Shown one piece after another: positions 16,231 to 24,780 of a DNA stretch of 24,780 bases (the stretch's first letter is position 1; every line of letters begins with the position of its first letter). This DNA is from Calditrichota bacterium. GTDB taxonomy: Bacteria > Calditrichota > Calditrichia > RBG-13-44-9 > J042. The position numbers and the translations under genes were made by a program. The stretch covers positions 1 through 24,780 of the forward strand of contig JAADJD010000011.1 of the NCBI GenBank assembly GCA_013150955.1, read 5' to 3'. The notes below the pieces were generated by a model. That model was not told where the DNA came from. It made no database searches and saw nothing but the letters and a program-made list of their open reading frames with translations.

Positions 16231-16314
16231 GCGCGGGTGGCGGAATTGGCAGACGCGCCAGACTTAGGATCTGGTGCCCGAGAGGGTGTGTGGGTTCGAG
16301 TCCCACCCCGCGCA
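16231..16314 (+). tRNA. tRNA-Leu (anticodon UAG)
   Basis: A complete class II tRNA. The acceptor stem is GCGCGGG with CCCGCGC, the anticodon stem CCAGA with TCTGG encloses loop CTTAGGA, and the anticodon TAG is at 16265-16267. A long variable arm follows (GCCC-GAGA-GGGT), then T arm GTGGG-TTCGAGT-CCCAC. The discriminator base is A. CCA is not encoded (CGA follows), so it must be added after transcription. A dispersed repeat element begins 17 bases downstream. Confidence 0.97.
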
Positions 16315-16331
16315 CGAAAAATTGCATTCAT

Positions 16332-16496
16332 CCCGGATTATGCGTTAGACCACGAATGACACGAATTAACACAAATAAAACTAACAAAATCCATTGGATT
16401 AGATCTTGATGAAAATGTGTTCCGGGGTTTATTTCCGATTTTATGGATATTTCTGGGATACATTCGCGTGATTCGTGGTTTTGTGGATTATTTGGG
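16332..16496. repeat. Dispersed inverted-repeat element next to tRNA-Leu
   Basis: Starts CCCGGATTATGCG and ends GTGGATTATTTGGG, with the two ends imperfectly inverted (CACGAATGACACGAATT against ATTCGCGTGATTCGTGG). It is about 165 bases long, with no coding capacity. It supplies the first 18 codons of the open frame of the next gene, which is why that gene's upstream extension is not believed. Confidence 0.75.
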
Positions 16497-16523
16497 ATAA
16501 AAAGACGTCCTGGGAAATTTGTC

Positions 16524-17162
16524 ATGAAAATCGTATGGTTGATAGGATCAATCATCATCGGTGTTAGTTTTGGTTACGGTCAGGGAATGTATCTGGCGAA
16601 CGAAAATGGGCTGAGCGCAAGCATCGCGTATGGGCGGTTTAATTCGGATACGAAATTGGAATTATCCGGTTCATATTCACTAAAGGGTTACATTGATCTG
16701 TCCTATGCTCGATCTTTTATATTCGATAAAGAAAATTCCGAAAACGTTCAGAATGAGATTTTTACAAGAATTTACCTGTTTAAAAAGAGCCGCCTGTTTT
16801 TTTCCAGTGCTGTTGGTTTCGTATACCTGGAAGCGACAACTGACCTGTGGAAAAATTTCCCCTTTACATTCTTACGCAGGGGTCTGGCATTTCAGGGGGG
16901 CTTACATGTTGTCTTAAAAAATCAAAAATCGAAAAAATTAATTTCGTCGATTTTCTATCAGCATTCCAATCCTGTTGTGGAATATCGGACGCCACAGAAA
17001 AGCATTCTCAAGACATCGAGGGTTCGTTTGGTTATTTTTGAAGGGGCTGCTATTTATATGGTGGGACAAATGAGTTTCATCTTGGGCCCACGAATAAACC
17101 TGGATATTGATAGAGGCAGTATTTTTTATGGATTTAAATTTAGTGGCATGGTTAGACATTGA
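16524..17162 (+). CDS. Probable outer-membrane or secreted protein, unknown function
   Basis: 212 residues from ATG 16524. Residues 1-20 form a signal peptide (MKIVWLIGSIIIGVSFGYGQ, with cleavage plausible near GYGQG). The rest alternates polar and hydrophobic residues in short strands (LELSGSYSLKGYIDLSYAR, FFSSAVGFVYLEA, INLDIDRGSIFYGFKFSG) rich in Gly, Ser and aromatics. It ends near FKFSGMVRH, as small outer-membrane beta-barrels often do. No family is recognised. There is no good ribosome site. The open frame extends upstream to 16443 only through repeat DNA. The gene is more A+T-rich than those before tRNA-Leu and opens a low-G+C stretch that continues to about 21.8 kb. Confidence 0.65.
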   Translation: MKIVWLIGSIIIGVSFGYGQGMYLANENGLSASIAYGRFNSDTKLELSGSYSLKGYIDLSYARSFIFDKENSENVQNEIFTRIYLFKKSRLFFSSAVGFVYLEATTDLWKNFPFTFLRRGLAFQGGLHVVLKNQKSKKLISSIFYQHSNPVVEYRTPQKSILKTSRVRLVIFEGAAIYMVGQMSFILGPRINLDIDRGSIFYGFKFSGMVRH

Positions 17163-17400
17163 CCAAATGATTGAAAAATGCGCATCAACTTAGATATCAT
17201 ATTGTTGAAAGCCAGAGGAAAAATAGGCAGCCATCGCAAAACGAATTTTACGGTTTGTTTTTTGGATATAAATCTGGTTGTGTAACAGGCTATTTCAGAT
17301 GAAAAAATCATTTGGACAACTGAATTTTGTCGCAGGACAGGATCCCATTGTTGGAGTTTGTTAGAGCAATTTTTCTGGAAGAGCAGAACAAGCGGTCATT
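17163..17400. other. 238-base gap, nothing recognised
   Basis: A+T-rich sequence with short open frames on both strands and no recognisable protein, RNA or repeat. It separates the secreted-protein gene from the relic at 17401. Confidence 0.5.
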
Positions 17401-17740
17401 TTAAACTAAAATGACGTTTGGCACACGGCGTTCATCTATAGTGTTGACAATTCGAAGAACTGCTAAGGTGTACAGATGGCGGCTACGTTCAACATTATTT
17501 AGAGGTGCAGAAACAATTGATTTCCCGGTAAAAATCTGCTCTTGCACCCACTTTACAGAGGGAAAATCTCATCGTTGCGAAAAAGTTGTTTGTGTATATT
17601 TTTGAACAATGATGAAGCGTTTCGAAGCAATACAGGGATTTGATAAGTGGCATCATTCGACGGCTGAACCAATTTATCAAGATAAAGGACCAAGCATATC
17701 GATCAAGTTAACAGCTGACCTCGACAGCAATGGATAGTTG
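17401..17740 (-). pseudogene. Frameshifted relic of an unrecognised protein gene
   Basis: Reading the minus strand, one frame runs from about 17690 to the TAA near 17552 and encodes a natural-looking segment (LDKLVQPSNDATYQIPVLLR, then NIHKQLFRNDEIFP). One base of slip then continues into a second frame with KWVQEQIFTGKSIVSAPL and VERSRHLYTLAVLRIVNTID, ending at TAA 17401-17403. Further upstream a third frame offers VNLIDMLGPL before another break near 17690. At least two frameshifts are needed. The 5' part is cut off where a dispersed element begins at 17779. I do not recognise the family; a transposase or accessory-gene remnant is possible. Confidence 0.55.
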
Positions 17741-17778
17741 TTTCACTGCTTATGGAATGGGTGCCGATTGCAAATAAA

Positions 17779-18056
17779 GCCAAATAATGCGTTAAGCCAC
17801 GAATCACTCGAATGAATTCAAATCATATCAATAAAATAACGAATGTATCCGAGAAAACATTTTCATCCAGATAGAATCAAGTGTATTTTATCCCAAATTA
17901 TGCAATAAACCGCGAATCACACGAATGAAACCAAAAAATATCTACAAAATCGCGAATAAACCCTGAAACACATTTTCATACAGACACAATCAAATGTATT
18001 ATATTGGTTTTATTTGTGTTGATTCGTGTCATTCGTAGGCTATTGCATAATCTGGG
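17779..18056. mobile_element. Truncated dispersed element plus a complete copy inserted beside it
   Basis: A left end begins at about 17779 (CCAAATAATGCG) and runs to GTATTTTAT at 17891. A complete element then occupies 17892-18056 (CCCAAATTATGCAATAAACC to CATAATCTGGG). The junction after TTTTAT matches the position used by the nested copy at 8237. The outer right half is not found after 18056, so it has been lost. The first part abuts the gene relic at 17401-17740. Confidence 0.7.
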
Positions 18057-18149
18057 TTTAATGCTTCATACCGCATGATTTTGTGATCAAAATATACAAT
18101 TTTCAATTTTACTTGTTGTGCTATTTTTGGATAAAACCAGAATTTAAAA

Positions 18150-18329
18150 AACCGTTAAAACGGTTAATCATCAATCGGTTACATTATCCGTTCTCCTGGC
18201 TGAAGCCAGGAGTTCATAGAATTTCTCATTCATGAACATCCATATTTATCCCGGTGGACAACTTCTATAGTAATAAGTAAGTTATAGAACCGTTTTAGCG
18301 GTTTGGGTTGTCTAATTCGCACAACGGGT
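18150..18329 (+). repeat. Hairpin-rich REP/REPIN-like block, copy 2
   Basis: Four inverted repeats are packed into 180 bases: AACCGTT with AACGGTT (18150-18165); a perfect 8-base stem CTCCTGGC-TGAA-GCCAGGAG (18193-18212); TTCTATA with TATAGAA (18263-18289); and the 41-base sequence shared with positions 1-41 (18289-18329). No ORF is present. The layout suggests a REP-associated non-autonomous element, and transfer by a RAYT transposase elsewhere in the genome is inferred. Confidence 0.6.
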
Positions 18330-18389
18330 CAATTTTATTATTGAAAATTTACTCTATCTTTTTTATTCTTTAAAAAATTCGGGAAATTT

Positions 18390-18418
18390 TTGCAATTTAT
18401 ATTTGACATAAATATAAT
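18390..18418 (+). promoter_or_regulatory. Sigma-70-type promoter for the ClpP-like/ATPase pair
   Basis: TTGCAA at 18390-18395 and a perfect TATAAT at 18413-18418 are separated by 17 bases in a strongly A+T-rich region. The expected transcript start near 18425 leaves a leader of about 160 bases before the protease gene, including a second strong ribosome site at 18492-18498. No other gene lies between, so it most likely serves the two-gene unit. Confidence 0.6.
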
Positions 18419-18583
18419 AGACAAAAAATTCCATAAATTTTGATTTTTGTGGTCACGAAAAGATGTATCCATCCGCGCAATTTTTGTATTCAGGAGGTAT
18501 CCTCGTGCCTTAGATGGATTTATGCGCAATAAGTTTTGTTAATGTAGTGTACCAAATATTTTATTTCATAAGGAGTGTTCACG

Positions 18584-19120
18584 ATGTGGGAAGAAAGTCA
18601 ATTATTATCCCATCGCATTATTTTTTTGTCCCAACCCATCGATAGCGGCGTGGCTAACCGTATTATTAGCCAGCTGCTATTATTGGAGGCGGATAGTCAG
18701 GAAAAGCAAATTGATTTGTATATCAATTGCGGTGGAGGCTCCGTGAAGGATGGACTGGCCATTATCGATGCCATTCAGTGTTTGCATGCCCCGGTTAGTA
18801 CGATTTGTGTTGGGTTGGCGGGTTCCATGGCTGCCTGGATTTTAGCTGCAGGAAAACCCGGCCTGCGTTTTGCAACCCCCAATGCGGAAGTGATGATTCA
18901 TCAAATGTCCACCCATTTGCAGGGAGTAACAGAAGATATCCTGCGCTATAGTCAGCGATTGATGCGACTTCAAACCAGCTTGATAAACATGTTGGCGAAA
19001 TGGACCGGTCAGGATGTAGCGCGGATTCAGGAGGACATCCAGAAAGATTATTTTATGACCGCACAAGAGGCTTTGGATTATGGCATTATCGATAGCGTCC
19101 TTCAACCTGTAGACAAATGA
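18584..19120 (+). CDS. ClpP-fold serine protease lacking the N-terminal axial segment
   Basis: 178 residues from ATG 18584, placed by AAGGAG 8 bases upstream. The whole ClpP core is present: LLSHRIIFLSQPID, IDLYINCGGGSV, the nucleophile S81 in GLAGSMAAW, H106 in VMIHQM and D155 in QKDYFMTAQEAL. The spacings of 25 and 49 residues are those of E. coli ClpP (97/122/171). Differences are absence of the roughly 20 N-terminal residues that form the axial loops and gate, and NCGGG in place of NSPGG. A ClpP that works with ClpX or ClpA would keep the N-terminal loops. It is 15 bases upstream of a pumping-type ATPase, with no Clp unfoldase nearby. Likely a soluble ring-forming peptidase with a non-standard partner. 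Confidence 0.9.
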   Translation: MWEESQLLSHRIIFLSQPIDSGVANRIISQLLLLEADSQEKQIDLYINCGGGSVKDGLAIIDAIQCLHAPVSTICVGLAGSMAAWILAAGKPGLRFATPNAEVMIHQMSTHLQGVTEDILRYSQRLMRLQTSLINMLAKWTGQDVARIQEDIQKDYFMTAQEALDYGIIDSVLQPVDK

Positions 19121-19135
19121 AGGGAGGTTCCTTTA

Positions 19136-21778
19136 ATGAAGGGGGTAAGAAAACGGGGAGATGCCCATTTTCACGTCCACATTATCCCGGATCCTGATTC
19201 TCAACGGGTTCAGGCCGTAGCCGGATTAAGGCTAATTTCCTGTCCCATCATTCATGAGACAAATGAGTCGCTGGAACAAGTATTAACCCGTCGTTTAAAT
19301 GAACAGATGGATTTTTTGAATAGTCTATATTCCAATAATTCCAGGCGAACGTTTTCATTGCGATACATCAGTATGCCGGATAAAAACTCGGTGTCCCGGG
19401 GAAAAGTGGAAATTGTTTGCTGGATAAAGGAAACGATGGATTCCCGTAAGAAAGTAATCAAACACATGCAGCAATTCGGTGAAGAGGTAGAGACCATCAT
19501 TTACAGTATCTTACCTCATTACGAATGGTGCTGGCTTACTGAGGATGTATTTTACCAATACTGGGAGCCGTGGAATTTTGAAAAGGCAGATTTTAAAGAA
19601 ATTCGGCGCAGGGAAAGTTTAATTCTAAAAGAAACGATGAAACCGCGGCCAGTATTGGGTAAAGGGCGGCAATCAACGCAACCAGAATGGTCCGAAGAAG
19701 ATACGATTTATTTTGTCCATAATTTTATTCCTCAGTTAACCACCTTAGCCCGATTATTACGATTAATGTTGCTTCATTCGGAACCGGTTGTTTTTCAAAT
19801 AAACCTGCAACCAACAGAATTGCAGGAGCAGGAGGAGGCAGCCTTACAACACGAAATGGCAAAATGTGATACGGTAGAAAAAAATTATGCTGGACACGAA
19901 GCGTTTATCTCGCGCCATGCCCGGATTCTTTCCGATGTTTTATTAAATCAATGGATGCGCCTGCAGGATGCCCCTTTTTTAATGAATATTTTATTAGCCA
20001 GTCCACGGGCAATTCCACAATCTCTGGTAGAAGCTATTGGATCTGAAATTACGCAACCGGTTGGTATGATACAGGAATGGGAAGTTCCGGTGCAACCACT
20101 TTTTTTGCAAATGGGGGGATACGATGTGCTTCAGCCCAATACAGTGGAGGAACGAGAACAATTCCTCATCAATTTACAACAACTCATGTTTGTGCCCTGG
20201 GGTCCAACACTTGCTCCAGAATCTTTAAAACGGTTGCGTTATCTGGTAGATGCCCTGGAAGCCTCTGCAGCATTTCGCTTTCCCATTGCCGGCAATGAGG
20301 AATTGTTGGGAGTGGATGTTCGGTTAAATCGAACCCTTTCATTACCTGCGGAAGTTGCTCATTTGAATGATCCCGGTAATAAAAAGCGCCATTTGTTTGT
20401 CGGAGTTAATCGCCATCTGGGAAGGGAGGAACAGGTATTTATTGCTCAGTCAGACCGGCAGCAACATGTTTACATTATTGGTCAAACGGGTACCGGTAAA
20501 ACTACACTATTAAAGACCATGATTCTATCGGATATTGAGGCTGGTAGAGGTGTGGCTGTTATCGATCCTCACGGAGATTTATTTGATGAATTGTTGGCTT
20601 CCATACCTGACCATCGAATCGATGATGTCGTTGTTCTGGATCCCAATGATATCGACTATCCTGTGGGCATCAATCCCTTGGAATACCGTCATCCAGACGA
20701 GCGGTTTCATTTTATCCGGGAATTTAAAAGCATTATTTTAAAACTTATGAGGGATGAGTATGGTCCTGCTGGCCTCGAGATGTTAGGCCCTATTTTTTTT
20801 CAGCACGTGCAAATGAATTTATTGCTGGTAATGTCCAATCCGGAAAATCCGGGCACATTGATTGATTTAAATCAGATTTTTACTGTCCCCAATTATTATG
20901 TTCGGTTTATCCCCCCTAAGGTCAGTGATCCCCAACTGGATCAATGGATAAAGCATGTGTTACCTGAAGCTGATTATTTCGGGAGACCCCTTGGCGGAGA
21001 GTTACCTCTGGGCGATTATATGCGCAGTAAATTGGAGAATTTTTTGTTTGACCCCCGGATGCGCTTTATGTTTGGTCAACAGCACACCACCGTGAATTTT
21101 CGTCAAATCATGGATGAAGGGAAAATTTTATTAATTAATCTTGCAAAAGGAGAATTGACGGAATCAAATTCACGCTTTTTGGGCATGTTGCTATTGTCGC
21201 TGATTAATCAGGCGGCTATGTCCAGAGTGGATATCCCTCACTCCAGACGCCGCATGTTTTATCTGTATGTTGATGAATTTCAGGCCATTGCCACTGAGAA
21301 TTTTACCATTTTGCTTTCGGAAGCTCGTAAATTTGGCATTAGTTTGGTGTTGGCCAATCAGTTTGTTTCCCAGATTGAAAATGAGCGCATTATCCAGGCC
21401 TTATTTGGCAATGTGGGAACCCTCATTACTTTCCGCGTGGGCAATGAAGATGCCCGGCGATATCTGGCCCCTCAATTTCGTCCATACATAGATGCGCAGG
21501 AATTAAGCAATTTACCTAACTGGCATGCATTTGTGAAAACCCGGGTACAAGGGAATAGTGTCCGACCTTTCCTATTGCATACGGTATTGCCTGACCGGAA
21601 ACCGAATATTGAAACAGCCCGAAAAATTCGTCAGCTTTCGCGAAAAAAATATGGACGTCCCCGTAAAGAGGTGGAAAGTCAAATTGACTTGCAACTGAAA
21701 TATGTGCCACCCAGGGTGGACCGGGACACGATTCGCGAGATGATCAACCAGAAACAGGATGATTCATCAGATAATTAA
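19136..21778 (+). CDS. FtsK/HerA/TraG-type ATPase with a large unique N-terminal region
   Basis: 880 residues. ATG follows GGGAGG by 8 bases. Residues 1-430 have no recognisable domain (start GDAHFHVHIIPDPDSQ) and no transmembrane segment, unlike VirD4/TraD coupling proteins. The ATPase core has Walker A GQTGTGKT at 449-456, VAVIDPHGDLFDELL, and Walker B FYLYVDEFQA with D713/E714. It continues with LLSEARKFGISLVLANQ and LFGNVGTLITFRVGNEDARR, typical of the TraG/TraM-recognition branch. The tail is basic (RQLSRKKYGRPRKE). Relatives are hexameric motors that pump DNA or drive partner enzymes. Context (ClpP-like gene upstream, no relaxase or pilus genes) argues against conjugation. Codons are A+T-rich compared with the genes before 16.2 kb. 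Confidence 0.88.
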   Translation: MKGVRKRGDAHFHVHIIPDPDSQRVQAVAGLRLISCPIIHETNESLEQVLTRRLNEQMDFLNSLYSNNSRRTFSLRYISMPDKNSVSRGKVEIVCWIKETMDSRKKVIKHMQQFGEEVETIIYSILPHYEWCWLTEDVFYQYWEPWNFEKADFKEIRRRESLILKETMKPRPVLGKGRQSTQPEWSEEDTIYFVHNFIPQLTTLARLLRLMLLHSEPVVFQINLQPTELQEQEEAALQHEMAKCDTVEKNYAGHEAFISRHARILSDVLLNQWMRLQDAPFLMNILLASPRAIPQSLVEAIGSEITQPVGMIQEWEVPVQPLFLQMGGYDVLQPNTVEEREQFLINLQQLMFVPWGPTLAPESLKRLRYLVDALEASAAFRFPIAGNEELLGVDVRLNRTLSLPAEVAHLNDPGNKKRHLFVGVNRHLGREEQVFIAQSDRQQHVYIIGQTGTGKTTLLKTMILSDIEAGRGVAVIDPHGDLFDELLASIPDHRIDDVVVLDPNDIDYPVGINPLEYRHPDERFHFIREFKSIILKLMRDEYGPAGLEMLGPIFFQHVQMNLLLVMSNPENPGTLIDLNQIFTVPNYYVRFIPPKVSDPQLDQWIKHVLPEADYFGRPLGGELPLGDYMRSKLENFLFDPRMRFMFGQQHTTVNFRQIMDEGKILLINLAKGELTESNSRFLGMLLLSLINQAAMSRVDIPHSRRRMFYLYVDEFQAIATENFTILLSEARKFGISLVLANQFVSQIENERIIQALFGNVGTLITFRVGNEDARRYLAPQFRPYIDAQELSNLPNWHAFVKTRVQGNSVRPFLLHTVLPDRKPNIETARKIRQLSRKKYGRPRKEVESQIDLQLKYVPPRVDRDTIREMINQKQDDSSDN

Positions 21779-21812
21779 AAAAACAACCAGGATCTTTCCG
21801 TTAAGCAATAAT

Positions 21813-22000
21813 CCCAAATAATGCACTAAACCACGAATCACACGAATGAATCTTAAAATATCTACAAAATCACGAAAAACCCCGAAACAAAACTTCACCA
21901 GTATATAATTTTATTTGTGTTCATTCGTGTCATTCGTAGGCTATTGCTTAATCTGGGTTCATTTTGGATGCATTCGCGTGACTCGCGGTTTTAATACGTT
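21813..22000. repeat. Shortened dispersed element after the ATPase gene
   Basis: CCCAAATAATGCAC starts at 21813 and ATAATCTGGG or a close variant ends at 21957; the interior is about 20 bases shorter than in other copies. A second partial end (ATTCGCGTGACTCGCGG) follows to about 22000, abutting the CAP-domain gene's stop codon. No terminator for the ATPase gene is visible. Confidence 0.65.
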
Positions 22001-22010
22001 TTGCTCGGAA

Positions 22011-22700
22011 TTATCTTCTTACCTTGATCGCCCAGGCAACCATCCGGTGCTCGCCAAACTTCAGGTTCAGATAGTACCACCCGGGGATATCGGCCAGGCG
22101 AACCCGAAGGATTACATAAGGCGGCGCCAGGGTGGTGTGCAGCACCTGGCAGTTTCCCCGCCCTTTCGATGGCTCCGGACGTGCAGAATACGTATACGGG
22201 GTGAAAAAGATACGCGGTGGGCTTTGTTCCCACACCACCGGTTTCACCCAGATGCGAATGGTCACCTGCTGTCCGGTTCGCAATTGGCTCGTTTCCGGCA
22301 AATGGCAAATGTATTGAAGGTCTCCAAAAACCTGGGTCAAAAATACATAGTACGCGGTGGCCATTACCCCCACCCCAAGATGGGTATAATCGGGATGTAA
22401 TATATTTTCCCGATGTCCCGGGCTTCCCATGAGATCATGCACTACATTCCAGGCTTCATCGCGCAGGGCTTCCGCGGTGGTCAAAACAATGGGGCTGTCG
22501 GAATATAGGACAAGACAATTTTCACCCACAAAACCGTGATATTCGGGTGCGTGGTGCACCACCCTTTGGCCAACATCCTGTCCCCGGGAGTTGGTATGCC
22601 CCAGATACCCATGGCGGGCCATGTCCTGACAATGCTGGAGGGCGGTTTGTGCCAGACGATCGTCCCATTTCAGTACACCAAGCCGGTGCTGCTGGCGCAC
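22011..22700 (-). CDS. CAP/SCP-domain protein, probably 5'-disrupted
   Basis: 229 residues from a GTG at 22700. The CAP (SCP/PR-1/Ag5) domain covers about 1-130: LKWDDRLAQTALQHCQDMAR, YLGHTNSRGQ, VGENCL, then the signature MGSPGHRENILHPDYTHLGVGV. Residues 135-229 form a C-terminal beta-rich extension (VTIRIWVKPVVWEQ, WYYLNLKFGEHRMVAWAI). Bacterial CAP proteins are normally exported, yet no signal peptide is seen. The N-terminal first helix is cut: the frame continues upstream as WVFQETNA to a TGA at 22725-22727. Beyond that, in the same frame, 24 codons lead to an ATG with a GGGGAGG ribosome site. Reinitiation at GTG 22700 is possible (AGGA about 11 bases upstream), but a disrupted gene is more likely. 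Confidence 0.75.
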   Translation of the reverse strand: MRQQHRLGVLKWDDRLAQTALQHCQDMARHGYLGHTNSRGQDVGQRVVHHAPEYHGFVGENCLVLYSDSPIVLTTAEALRDEAWNVVHDLMGSPGHRENILHPDYTHLGVGVMATAYYVFLTQVFGDLQYICHLPETSQLRTGQQVTIRIWVKPVVWEQSPPRIFFTPYTYSARPEPSKGRGNCQVLHTTLAPPYVILRVRLADIPGWYYLNLKFGEHRMVAWAIKVRR

Positions 22701-22724
22701 GGCATTGGTTTCCTGAAAGACCCA

Positions 22725-22799
22725 TCAGGCCAGTATGCGGGCAATCTGGGGACGGGCAATCCCACGGCCAGTTAAGGGTAAGGGAATGGGTTTGTCCAT
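22725..22799 (-). pseudogene. Detached 5' end of the CAP-domain gene
   Basis: ATG at 22797-22799 with GGGGAGG four bases upstream opens 24 codons (MDKPIPLPLTGRGIARPQIA...) and stops at TGA 22725-22727. It is exactly in frame with the CAP ORF at 22011-22700, and the codons between encode WVFQETNA, which reads as the missing part of the first CAP helix. One nonsense change, or a sequencing error, would account for the break. Confidence 0.6.
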
Positions 22800-22828
22800 T
22801 ATACCTCCCCATTGGTTAAACCAGATGA

Positions 22829-22880
22829 CTCTCACCGGCAGGGAGAAACGGTGTAGTGCTCCTGCGGTGAGAGACATTTT
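22829..22880 (+). terminator. Strong hairpin followed by T-run upstream of the CAP gene
   Basis: CTCTCACCG (22829-22837) pairs with CGGTGAGAG (22865-22873). CAGG pairs with CCTG and AG with CT inside it, with two bulged G residues and a 13-base loop. ACATTTTTTG follows on the plus strand. This is the form of an intrinsic terminator for plus-strand transcription, yet no plus-strand gene lies upstream. On the minus strand it sits in the 5' leader of the CAP gene. Confidence 0.45.
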
Positions 22881-23020
22881 TTGATTTCAGAGCAATAAGG
22901 AATGAACCGGCATCTTGTGTTGACACCACGACGCGTTCATCATCGATGGCTTTAACGATGGAGAGAGTGGAAAGTTCTATTGGAAATGTAAAATTTCGGA
23001 TTGAAAGATTTCAACCTAAA

Positions 23021-23180
23021 AAGTGCAATAAACCGCGAATCACGCGAATGAAATCCAAAAATATCTACAAAATCGCGAATAAACTCCGAAACACATTTTC
23101 ATCCAGATCTAATCCAAGGTATTTTATTAATTTTATTTGTGTTAATTAGTGTAATTCGTGGTTCTAATGCGTAATCCTGG
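23021..23180. repeat. Dispersed inverted-repeat element
   Basis: Begins AAGTGCAATAAACCGCGAAT and ends near GCGTAATCCTGG, with the usual interior (ATATCTACAAAATCGCGAAT, TTTTCATCCAG, TTTTATTTGTG). The ends are somewhat diverged. 22881-23020 upstream holds no recognisable gene. Confidence 0.7.
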
Positions 23181-23290
23181 TTCAAGATTAGAAAATTAAA
23201 TTTTTTGGCATCAAAAATCCAGTATGGAAAAATCCGCCTGTCAAAATCAGGGTAACAAGCAGGGAGGCTTGTCGCACGATTTTTCAACGG

Positions 23291-23702
23291 GTTTAATCGC
23301 CTGTTGACAGGCGCATTCAAGGAAGAAGGGGCAGGGAGCAAGGGACAGGGGAAAATCCACCAAGCATCGATAATTTCCAACATCCCGGTCTTGGAGGAGG
23401 TCAATATTCTACCATTTGCCAAAAAAAGTATCTCACCAATCCAAACACCTGTCGACAGACCCATTTCAAACACAGATATCGCCGCGGCCGTCCGCGCCGC
23501 ACACAAGATGATGTCTCAATCGCCTGTCGACAGGCCCCATTCAAGGAAGAAGGGGCAAGGAGCAAGGAGCAAGGGACAAGGGAAAAATCTGGCAGACATC
23601 AACTATTGCCACCGACCCGGCCTTGTAGTAGGTCGATATTCTACTATTTGCCAAAACAAAAATTCACCTCTCCAAACACCTGCCGACAGGCACATTTCAA
23701 AC
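23291..23702. repeat. Duplicated long units at the old end of the CRISPR array
   Basis: Unit A (23291-23471) and unit B (23513-23702) each consist of a decayed CRISPR repeat, a segment of about 120 bases and another decayed repeat. The long segments are clearly homologous. Both open GAAGAAGGGGCA with AGCAAGGG-type heptad repeats, and both end with ATATTCTAC, ATTTGCCAAAA and TCACC blocks at matching places. A 41-base normal-size spacer (23472-23512) separates the units. Confidence 0.75.
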
Positions 23703-24131
23703 TTATACCAGAGTTTGCGAAAAGTCGGGTCTTCGGCCCGAAGTCTCAATCGCCTGCCAACAGGCCCATTTCAAACGATCACCCACCAGGACTATGACGG
23801 TCTACTGGCTGATTTGTCTCAATCGCCTGCCGACAGGCCCATTTCAAACAAAATGACACTTTGACTGTTATTTCTTATGCGAAGAGTCTCAATTGCCTGC
23901 CGACAGGCCCATTTCAAACGGCTTCGGTTTCGCTGGTCACTATTTTCTGAAAAAAAGTCTCAATCGCCTGCCGACAGGCCCATTTCAAACCGGCGCCATA
24001 TATGTTCCCAAAAACATTGAAGAAGTCTCAATCGCCTGCCGACAGGCCCATTTCAAACCACACTAGCAGAAGCTAGGCAACAACTTCATCATCGTCAGTC
24101 TCAATCGCCTGCCGACAGGCCCATTTCAAAC
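23291..24131 (-). CRISPR. CRISPR array without cas genes in the window, transcribed on the minus strand
   Basis: Six near-identical 34-base repeats start at 23743, 23816, 23886, 23957, 24025 and 24098, separated by spacers of 39, 36, 37, 34 and 39 bases. Four decayed repeats lie to the left (about 23291, 23438, 23513 and 23669). Each good repeat has an inner hairpin GCCTG-CCGA-CAGGC; changes in several copies fall in the loop (TTGA, TCGA, CCAA). Read on the minus strand the repeat ends GATTGAGAC, close to the ATTGAAAC end common in type I/III repeats. Together with the promoter at 24203-24231 and decay at the left, this makes the right end the leader side. The cas type cannot be stated. The 186-residue plus-strand ORF across the array is an artefact. 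Confidence 0.95.
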
Positions 24132-24200
24132 AGCGGCCTCTGAAACCCTTGTCCCATAACGCCTGAAACCCCGGTTTCCGAGGACCTCAACCGATTTTAA
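24132..24200 (-). promoter_or_regulatory. CRISPR leader (repeat-proximal part)
   Basis: This lies between the newest repeat and the promoter at 24203. It contains a perfect inverted repeat GAAACC-CC-GGTTTC (24165-24178) and a direct repeat CTGAAACCC at 24140-24148 and 24163-24171, 23 bases apart. It contains no ORF. Leader function is inferred from position, repeat conservation and promoter direction. Confidence 0.55.
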
Positions 24201-24202
24201 CC

Positions 24203-24231
24203 AATATACAAAATTTGCCCCAATTTGTCAA
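24203..24231 (-). promoter_or_regulatory. Consensus promoter driving the CRISPR array
   Basis: On the minus strand, a perfect TTGACA (24226-24231) is followed after exactly 17 bases by TATATT (24203-24208). Transcription would start near 24196 and enter the array at 24131 through a leader of about 65 bases. Confidence 0.75.
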
Positions 24232-24525
24232 GTTTCCGTTTGAAGTAAATCATTGTTTTTCCTGATGTTGGTGGTATGTCGAGGACCGTTTTTTCGGCAA
24301 TTAACCTATAGGTAATATTGTTTTTAGGTTCTTTTTTTTTAACATCTCCAACCCCACCGTTCCGATCCTCGACATTTTGAATGCTCCTGCGACGAAAGGT
24401 GAATGTAGGCAACCTGGTTCCCCGGGGAAGAGGGAATATGCCCCATCCCAATGCCCGAGGACCGCAAGCCGCAGATAGCGGGTAAACCCGGGTGAAATCC
24501 CAACCTTCCGGTCGTTTCCCATATA
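24232..24525. other. Non-coding flank beyond the CRISPR leader
   Basis: No believable gene. The sequence has T-rich runs and a 9-base inverted repeat, TGTCGAGGA (24277-24285) and TCCTCGACA (24366-24374), enclosing about 80 bases. CGAGGACC also occurs near 24179, 24280 and 24456. The minus-strand ORFs here have no recognisable domain and run into repeat DNA at one end. Confidence 0.45.
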
Positions 24526-24527
24526 AA

Positions 24528-24780
24528 CCCAGATTATGCGTTAGAACCGCGAATGACACGAATGAACACCAATAAAATAATAAAATGCATTAGATTGTGT
24601 CTGGACGAAAATGTTTTCCCGGATACATTCGCTATTTTGTTGATTTTATTCCAGATTAAGCAATAGCCTACGAATGACACGAATTCACACAAATAAAACC
24701 AATAAAATCCATTGGATTGTGTCTGGATGAAAATGTGTTCCATAGTTTATTCGCGATTTTGTCGACATTTTTTGGTTTCA
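24528..24780. mobile_element. Dispersed element interrupted by another copy, running off the window
   Basis: The outer element starts CCCAGATTATGCG at 24528. After GATTTTATT (near 24649) a second copy begins CCAGATTAAGCAATAGCC at 24650 and continues past the window edge. As at 8237 and 17892, the inner copy begins after a TTTTAT sequence. Confidence 0.65.

What the first reader, a model, noticed from the sequence alone, without database searches (positions are those of the whole stretch)
18584..21778. ClpP-fold protease paired with a pumping-type (FtsK/HerA/TraG) ATPase
Seen: two genes 15 bp apart behind one promoter. The first has a full ClpP triad with exact E. coli spacing but lacks the N-terminal axial loop; the second is a soluble 880-residue RecA-fold motor with a roughly 430-residue unknown N-terminal region. 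Known: HerA-type hexamers pair with NurA, Sir2 and other effector domains, several of them in anti-phage systems; ClpP normally needs AAA+ unfoldases. Inference: the motor may replace ClpX/ClpA as gate or feeder of the protease ring, giving a protease-armed defence or DNA-processing complex. A+T-rich codon use, flanking repeats, a gene relic and a CRISPR array within 2 kb fit an accessory, defence-like location.
Basis: partly seen in the sequence, partly recalled or inferred. Interest (0 to 1): 0.8.

Follow-up and report, generated by a model that had tools for sequence, protein, structure and literature searches.

The report
Divergent ClpP beside CRISPR-linked pumping ATPase
Two neighbouring, probably co-transcribed bacterial genes encode an unusual protein-cutting enzyme and a DNA-pump-type motor; the motor's nearest relatives sit beside CRISPR immune loci in other bacteria, which makes a role in defence plausible, but no other genome examined carries the two genes together.

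Summary
In detail: a 178-aa ClpP-family gene (18584-19120) and an 880-aa ATPase (19136-21778), 15 bp apart, each with a Shine-Dalgarno site. The ClpP keeps its triad, lacks the axial loop (in-frame stop just upstream) and has lost part of the pocket that grips ClpX/ClpA; it has the longest branch of 47 ClpPs compared. The ATPase has a TrwB/VirB4/DndH/HerA-type motor and no membrane anchor.

The pairing is not conserved.

Those six, all Chloroflexota, form a 100/100 clade with the window ATPase. Three lie 11-15 kb from Cas10 of a type III-B CRISPR operon, with vWA, tubulin-like and transglutaminase-like genes; two have CRISPR arrays within about 1 kb. Ours lies about 1.7 kb from an array, in a region absent from a sister genome behind the same tRNA-Leu.

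Best reading: an acquired accessory operon, probably defence-related, with a repurposed ClpP. That the motor feeds the protease is possible but unsupported.

The parts
16231..16315 (+). tRNA-Leu gene; its 3' end is where synteny with the same-genus genome G001 stops (window 16318)
18569..18571 (+). in-frame TAA just upstream of the ClpP start: no N-terminal axial loop can be encoded
   Evidence: sequence; ORF list
18570..18583 (+). Shine-Dalgarno (AAGGAG) and spacer of the ClpP gene
18584..19120 (+). divergent ClpP-family serine protease, 178 aa; triad S81 (18824-18826), H106 (18899-18901), D155 (19046-19048); pocket changes Y60D, F82C, L114T and further changes P66G, P124M, G126T, G127H, R170K in E. 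coli numbering
19121..19135 (+). 15-bp intergenic gap with the Shine-Dalgarno (GGGAGG) of the ATPase gene
19136..21778 (+). 880-aa soluble FtsK/HerA/T4CP-superfamily ATPase
19136..20335 (+). N-terminal region (residues 1-400), conserved in six Chloroflexota relatives, no known family; fold not resolved (pLDDT mostly under 50)
20312..21715 (+). motor domain (about residues 393-860): Walker A GQTGTGKT at residues 449-456, Walker B YLYVDEF at 709-715
23433..24132 (+). CRISPR array, repeat GTCTCAATCGCCTGCCGACAGGCCCATTTCAAAC, period about 70 bp, degenerate at its left end; about 1.7 kb from the ATPase; no cas gene on this contig

Best explanation
The two genes form a horizontally acquired, co-transcribed accessory module, most likely of a defence system. 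The ATPase is a soluble motor of the TrwB/VirB4/DndH/HerA type, from a clade whose other members are often found at type III-B CRISPR loci together with vWA, tubulin-like and transglutaminase-like genes. In this genome, which lacks the tubulin-like partner, a ClpP-derived protease sits in the partner position. It is a repurposed, ClpX/ClpA-independent peptidase whose activity is probably set by the ATPase's nucleotide- or DNA-bound state; the cleaved target is unknown. Shown here: gene structure, catalytic residues, motor fold, clade membership, CRISPR-linked context of relatives, accessory location. Inferred: co-transcription, physical coupling, defence role, and that the ATPase regulates the protease rather than threading substrates into it.
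For: 15-bp gap and separate ribosome-binding sites. Both genes are unique among 40 genomes of the phylum: every other ClpP there is about equally distant (50% identity or less), and only two partial motor matches occur. Both have low GC3. The region is absent behind the same tRNA-Leu in the sister genome. The motor tree puts the window ATPase in a 100/100 clade with six Chloroflexota proteins. In three of these (G933, G1073, G1053) Cas10/Cmr genes lie 11-15 kb away and CARF Card1-like genes are near; in G1073 and G1053 the ATPase is in one gene row with Tubulin_2 and transglutaminase-like genes. CRISPR arrays lie 0.4 kb (G1073) and 1.0 kb (G385) from the ATPase, and 1.7 kb in the window. The partner in relatives carries a conserved C/H/E transglutaminase-like site, so an enzyme of peptidase-like fold beside this motor has a parallel. 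ClpP pocket and axial-loop losses argue against use by ClpX/ClpA.
Against: No second genome has the pair. No cas gene was found in the 1.46 Mb of 4.07 Mb of this genome that I could read, and the second array found (contig C27) has no cas gene in the 12 kb read. The CRISPR link rests on related genomes, not independent events, and G869 and G771 do not show it (G771's contig is only 10 kb). ClpP's long branch (0.89 against a median of 0.10) could also reflect decay.
Confidence: 0.45

Rival explanations
1. Chance neighbours: an acquired, drifting ClpP paralogue and an acquired ATPase landed side by side in a variable region behind tRNA-Leu and have no common task.
For: Adjacency absent in about 130 loci with ATPase relatives. 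ClpP branch unusually long. A broken CAP gene and copies of a genome-wide repeat family nearby show a region of loose order.
Against: Same strand, 15-bp gap, good ribosome-binding sites, both frames intact, catalytic residues of both kept.
Confidence: 0.27
2. Motor-fed protease machine: the ATPase hexamer docks on the ClpP-like ring and threads protein substrates into it, replacing ClpX/ClpA.
For: The ClpP has lost the axial loop and parts of the IGF-binding pocket, so its usual unfoldases are unlikely partners, and a motor of a ring-forming superfamily is next door.
Against: No IGF-like loop outside the motor core and no C-terminal docking motif seen in the ATPase. Its fold relatives move DNA or secreted protein-DNA complexes, and none of its relatives pairs with ClpP. 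No complex was modelled.
Confidence: 0.13
3. The ATPase is a coupling protein of a conjugative or mobilisable element, and ClpP is cargo.
For: Best Pfam match is TrwB_AAD_bind; best fold matches are TrwB and VirB4. More distant relatives on plasmids sit beside replication-relaxation and conjugal-transfer genes.
Against: No N-terminal membrane anchor. No relaxase or secretion-system gene was recognised in the window or in the clade's neighbourhoods, though not every neighbour was scanned. No full-length clade member in 72,556 plasmid records.
Confidence: 0.06
4. Degenerating locus: ClpP is no longer an active protease and the pair is on its way out.
For: 25 of 70 well-conserved ClpP columns (residues 19-193) differ, including P124, G126, G127 and R170.
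Against: Triad, oxyanion glycines and open frame kept.
Confidence: 0.09

Closest known systems
ClpP (ATP-dependent Clp protease proteolytic subunit, PF00574)
   Same: whole fold by sequence, triad with E. coli spacing, oxyanion glycines, about 42-53% identity to ordinary ClpPs
   Different: no axial loop; Y60D, F82C, L114T in the unfoldase pocket; P66, P124, G126, G127, R170 changed; no AAA+ unfoldase gene beside it
Type IV coupling proteins (TrwB/VirD4/TraG) and VirB4
   Same: motor fold (VIA Z 27.3 to TrwB, 26.9 to VirB4); TrwB_AAD_bind match
   Different: no membrane anchor, no relaxase or pore genes recognised nearby, own N-terminal region
DndH C-domain and MADS mad8 ATPases (phage-defence motors)
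   Same: motor fold (DndH-C Z 26.6); best PADLOC hit mad8 2.2e-19
   Different: no dnd or mad companion genes seen; different N-terminus
HerA with NurA, Sir2 or DUF4297 (DNA repair and anti-phage pairs)
   Same: motor plus small enzymatic partner encoded next door; motor fold Z 20-23.5
   Different: lower similarity than to TrwB; partner is a ClpP-type protease, not a nuclease or NADase; pairing not conserved
vWA/tubulin genes linked to CRISPR loci (Altae-Tran et al. 2023, PMC10910872) and GTPase-tubulin conflict systems (Kaur et al. 2020, PMC7159879)
   Same: the ATPase's closest relatives sit in or near such gene sets beside type III-B loci
   Different: this genome has no Tubulin_2 gene; the passages found in the two main texts name neither a ClpP nor this ATPase family

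Membership tests
ClpP protease | ClpP family by sequence profile | tested here: met
   PF00574 212.8 bits, cut-off 20.2
ClpP protease | Ser-His-Asp triad | tested here: met
   S81/H106/D155, spacing 25 and 49 as in E. coli
ClpP protease | N-terminal axial loop | tested here: not met
   absent; in-frame TAA directly upstream
ClpP protease | hydrophobic pocket for IGF loops of unfoldases | tested here: inconclusive
   Y60D, F82C, L114T changed; L48, Y62, I90, F112, L189 kept: partly lost
ClpP protease | tetradecamer and peptidase activity | not testable with these tools
   needs purified protein
Type IV coupling protein (T4CP) | VirD4/TrwB-type motor | tested here: met
Type IV coupling protein (T4CP) | N-terminal membrane anchor | tested here: not met
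   maximum 19-residue hydropathy 1.2
Type IV coupling protein (T4CP) | relaxase and secretion genes nearby | tested here: inconclusive
   none recognised in the window or in clade neighbourhoods read, but not every neighbour was scanned and the contig ends 3 kb away
HerA-effector defence pair | HerA-type motor | tested here: inconclusive
   same superfamily, Z 20-23.5, but nearer TrwB/VirB4; N-terminal domain not resolved
HerA-effector defence pair | conserved adjacency of motor and effector gene | tested here: not met
   no ClpP beside any ATPase relative
type III CRISPR auxiliary module | clade members found at type III CRISPR loci | tested here: met
   3 of 6 clade members within 15 kb of Cas10; 2 of 6 within about 1 kb of an array; no formal background test
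type III CRISPR auxiliary module | type III cas genes in the same genome | tested here: inconclusive
   none in 1.46 of 4.07 Mb read; two arrays present

The most novel reading that the evidence does not exclude
A protease-armed, CRISPR-linked motor: the ATPase hexamer directly gates or feeds the loopless ClpP-like ring, so that a DNA-pump-type motor has replaced an AAA+ unfoldase in a phage-defence machine.
Probability: 0.13. Interest if true: 0.85.

Novelty: new variant of a known kind. Interest (0 to 1): 0.5.

Why it matters
ClpP rings are known to work with AAA+ unfoldases. A ClpP that has dropped parts needed for them and sits in an operon with a FtsK/HerA-type motor would be a test case for whether another class of motor can control a ring protease. 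Separately, the ATPase clade described here, placed at type III-B CRISPR loci with vWA, tubulin-like and transglutaminase-like genes, is a concrete candidate for a CRISPR auxiliary module and can be tested whether or not the ClpP link is real.

Tried and rejected
Searched viral contigs with the ATPase, the ClpP and two ATPase alignments: no clade member, only distant motors. Phage and plasmid records: only distant motors covering about half of the query or less. Plasmid ClpP relatives: the neighbourhoods read are clpP-clpX-lon sets or unrelated genes. A 180-aa ClpP frame in G156 looked loopless but is cut by a contig end. N-terminal region: no Pfam family, no solved relative by profile, and AlphaFold models with pLDDT under 50 there, so I make no statement on its fold. 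No second copy of the tRNA-Leu 3' end in the contig, so integration at the tRNA is suggested only by the synteny break. Repeats as island markers: rejected, genome-wide. Rfam found only the tRNA. A ClpP-HerA defence link in the literature library: none found.

Full report
OBSERVATION. The window is one whole contig (C34, 24,780 bp) of a 4.07-Mb, 99.7% complete genome. The ClpP-family frame opens at ATG 18584 after AAGGAG, with an in-frame TAA at 18569, and ends at 19120; the ATPase frame runs 19136-21778 after GGGAGG, 15 bp downstream. Promoter-like hexamers are within chance numbers. GC3 of the two genes is 0.49 and 0.42, against 0.60-0.67 for five neighbours.

THE CLPP. It matches PF00574 at 212.8 bits and solved ClpPs at E 2e-48. 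Against 46 ordinary ClpPs it keeps S97, H122, D171 (E. coli numbering), N64, G67, G68 and Q123, but lacks the axial loop (most of residues 1-20) and changes P66G, P124M, G126T, G127H, R170K and three positions of the unfoldase pocket (Y60D, F82C, L114T; position 60 varies in general). Its terminal branch is 0.89 against a median of 0.10. Every other ClpP in the phylum is an ordinary copy or a distant paralogue, none specifically related to it. In 385 genomes of a domain-wide sample the listed relatives are ordinary-length ClpPs at 43-53% identity.

THE ATPASE. No transmembrane segment. AlphaFold gives a confident motor from about residue 395 to 860 and no confident model of the first 395 residues. 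VIA-align ranks TrwB (Z 27.3), VirB4 (26.9), the DndH C-domain (26.6), DotL (25.6), then HerA (up to 23.5). PADLOC's best match is mad8, 2.2e-19. In the phylum only two partial motor relatives exist.

IS THE PAIR CONSERVED? A final tblastn of the ClpP against all fetched loci found no ClpP near any of them. Limits: some flanks are short because contigs end, only two candidates per genome were scored in the large samples, and nothing closer than 42% identity to the window ATPase was found, so a young, lineage-specific partnership is not excluded.

WHAT THE RELATIVES SHOW. A maximum-likelihood tree of the motor puts the window ATPase in a clade (100/100) with six full-length proteins of Chloroflexota, 35-42% identical, which share the N-terminal region as well. 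Neighbours: G1073 has the ATPase 4 bp behind a transglutaminase-like gene and a Tubulin_2 gene; G1053 has ATPase, vWA, Tubulin_2, transglutaminase-like in a row; G933 has the vWA-Tubulin_2-transglutaminase set 20 kb away on the same contig; G385 has it on another contig; G869 has a DO-GTPase2-like gene instead. The transglutaminase-like domain keeps its C, H and E residues in all four. Cas10 lies about 14.7, 11 and 13.3 kb from the ATPase in G933, G1073 and G1053 (Cas10, Cmr4, Cmr6 matches; positions), with Card1-like CARF genes nearby. CRISPR arrays lie 0.4 kb (G1073) and 1.0 kb (G385) from it; in the window the array begins about 1.7 kb downstream. For genomes of 2-3 Mb this is unlikely to be chance, but the genomes are related and I did no formal background test.

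CONTEXT IN THIS GENOME. Synteny with the same-genus genome G001 is continuous up to window 16318, the 3' end of tRNA-Leu, and then stops. No attachment-site copy was found. The repeats around the pair occur at least 62 times in the genome. Tubulin_2 is absent from this genome. No Cas10, Cmr4, Card1, vWA-partner or transglutaminase-partner relative was found in the 36% of the genome I could read, so the CRISPR link here rests on the array and on the relatives.

MECHANISM. Shown: intact catalytic residues in both proteins, motor fold, loss of features that ClpX and ClpA use, accessory location, CRISPR-linked clade. Inferred: one transcript; physical coupling; a defence role; the motor, perhaps after binding DNA or a signal, switching a repurposed peptidase. 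Direct threading of proteins by this motor has no support beyond adjacency. The chief rival is that the neighbours are unrelated.

KNOWN OR NEW. vWA systems with tubulin-domain genes at CRISPR loci are reported from a large screen (PMC10910872), and GTPase-tubulin conflict systems, and FtsK-type domains as occasional effectors, are described (PMC7159879). I found no report of a ClpP with such a motor in the library searched. I rate it a new variant of a known kind.

Noticed in passing
L257, L258, L259, L266, L268, L272, L275 (Anaerolineales-order genomes G933, G1073, G1053, G385): A recurrent gene set vWA - Tubulin_2 - transglutaminase-like protein (conserved C/H/E) with or near the T4CP-like ATPase; in three genomes next to type III-B Cmr operons and Card1-like CARF genes. 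Looks like a CRISPR auxiliary module.
   Followed up: partly
L304 (G000:C27) 2714 to about 4400: A second CRISPR array of this genome, repeat beginning GTCTCAATCCCCTCTGAATAACG, among housekeeping genes with no cas gene in the first 12 kb.
   Followed up: partly
   Followed up: no
window 16330-24772: Imperfect repeats of about 130-150 bp containing CACGAATCACACGAATGAA, a genome-wide intergenic family (at least 62 matches).
   Followed up: partly
L222 4608-8861: ATPase relative of 1,417 aa fused to RCC1 repeats and an RNA polymerase alpha C-terminal domain.
   Followed up: no
L102 4490-8995: More distant ATPase relative of 1,501 aa fused to tetratricopeptide repeats (Anaerolinea).
   Followed up: no
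L073 (CP079755.1, 'Klebsiella grimontii' plasmid): Carries spoVA, spore-germination genes and a Firmicutes-like clpP: probably contamination or a misassigned record.
   Followed up: no
L069 6001-6525 (Vibrio parahaemolyticus plasmid record): An unannotated divergent ClpP-like frame between hypothetical genes, near secA.
   Followed up: no
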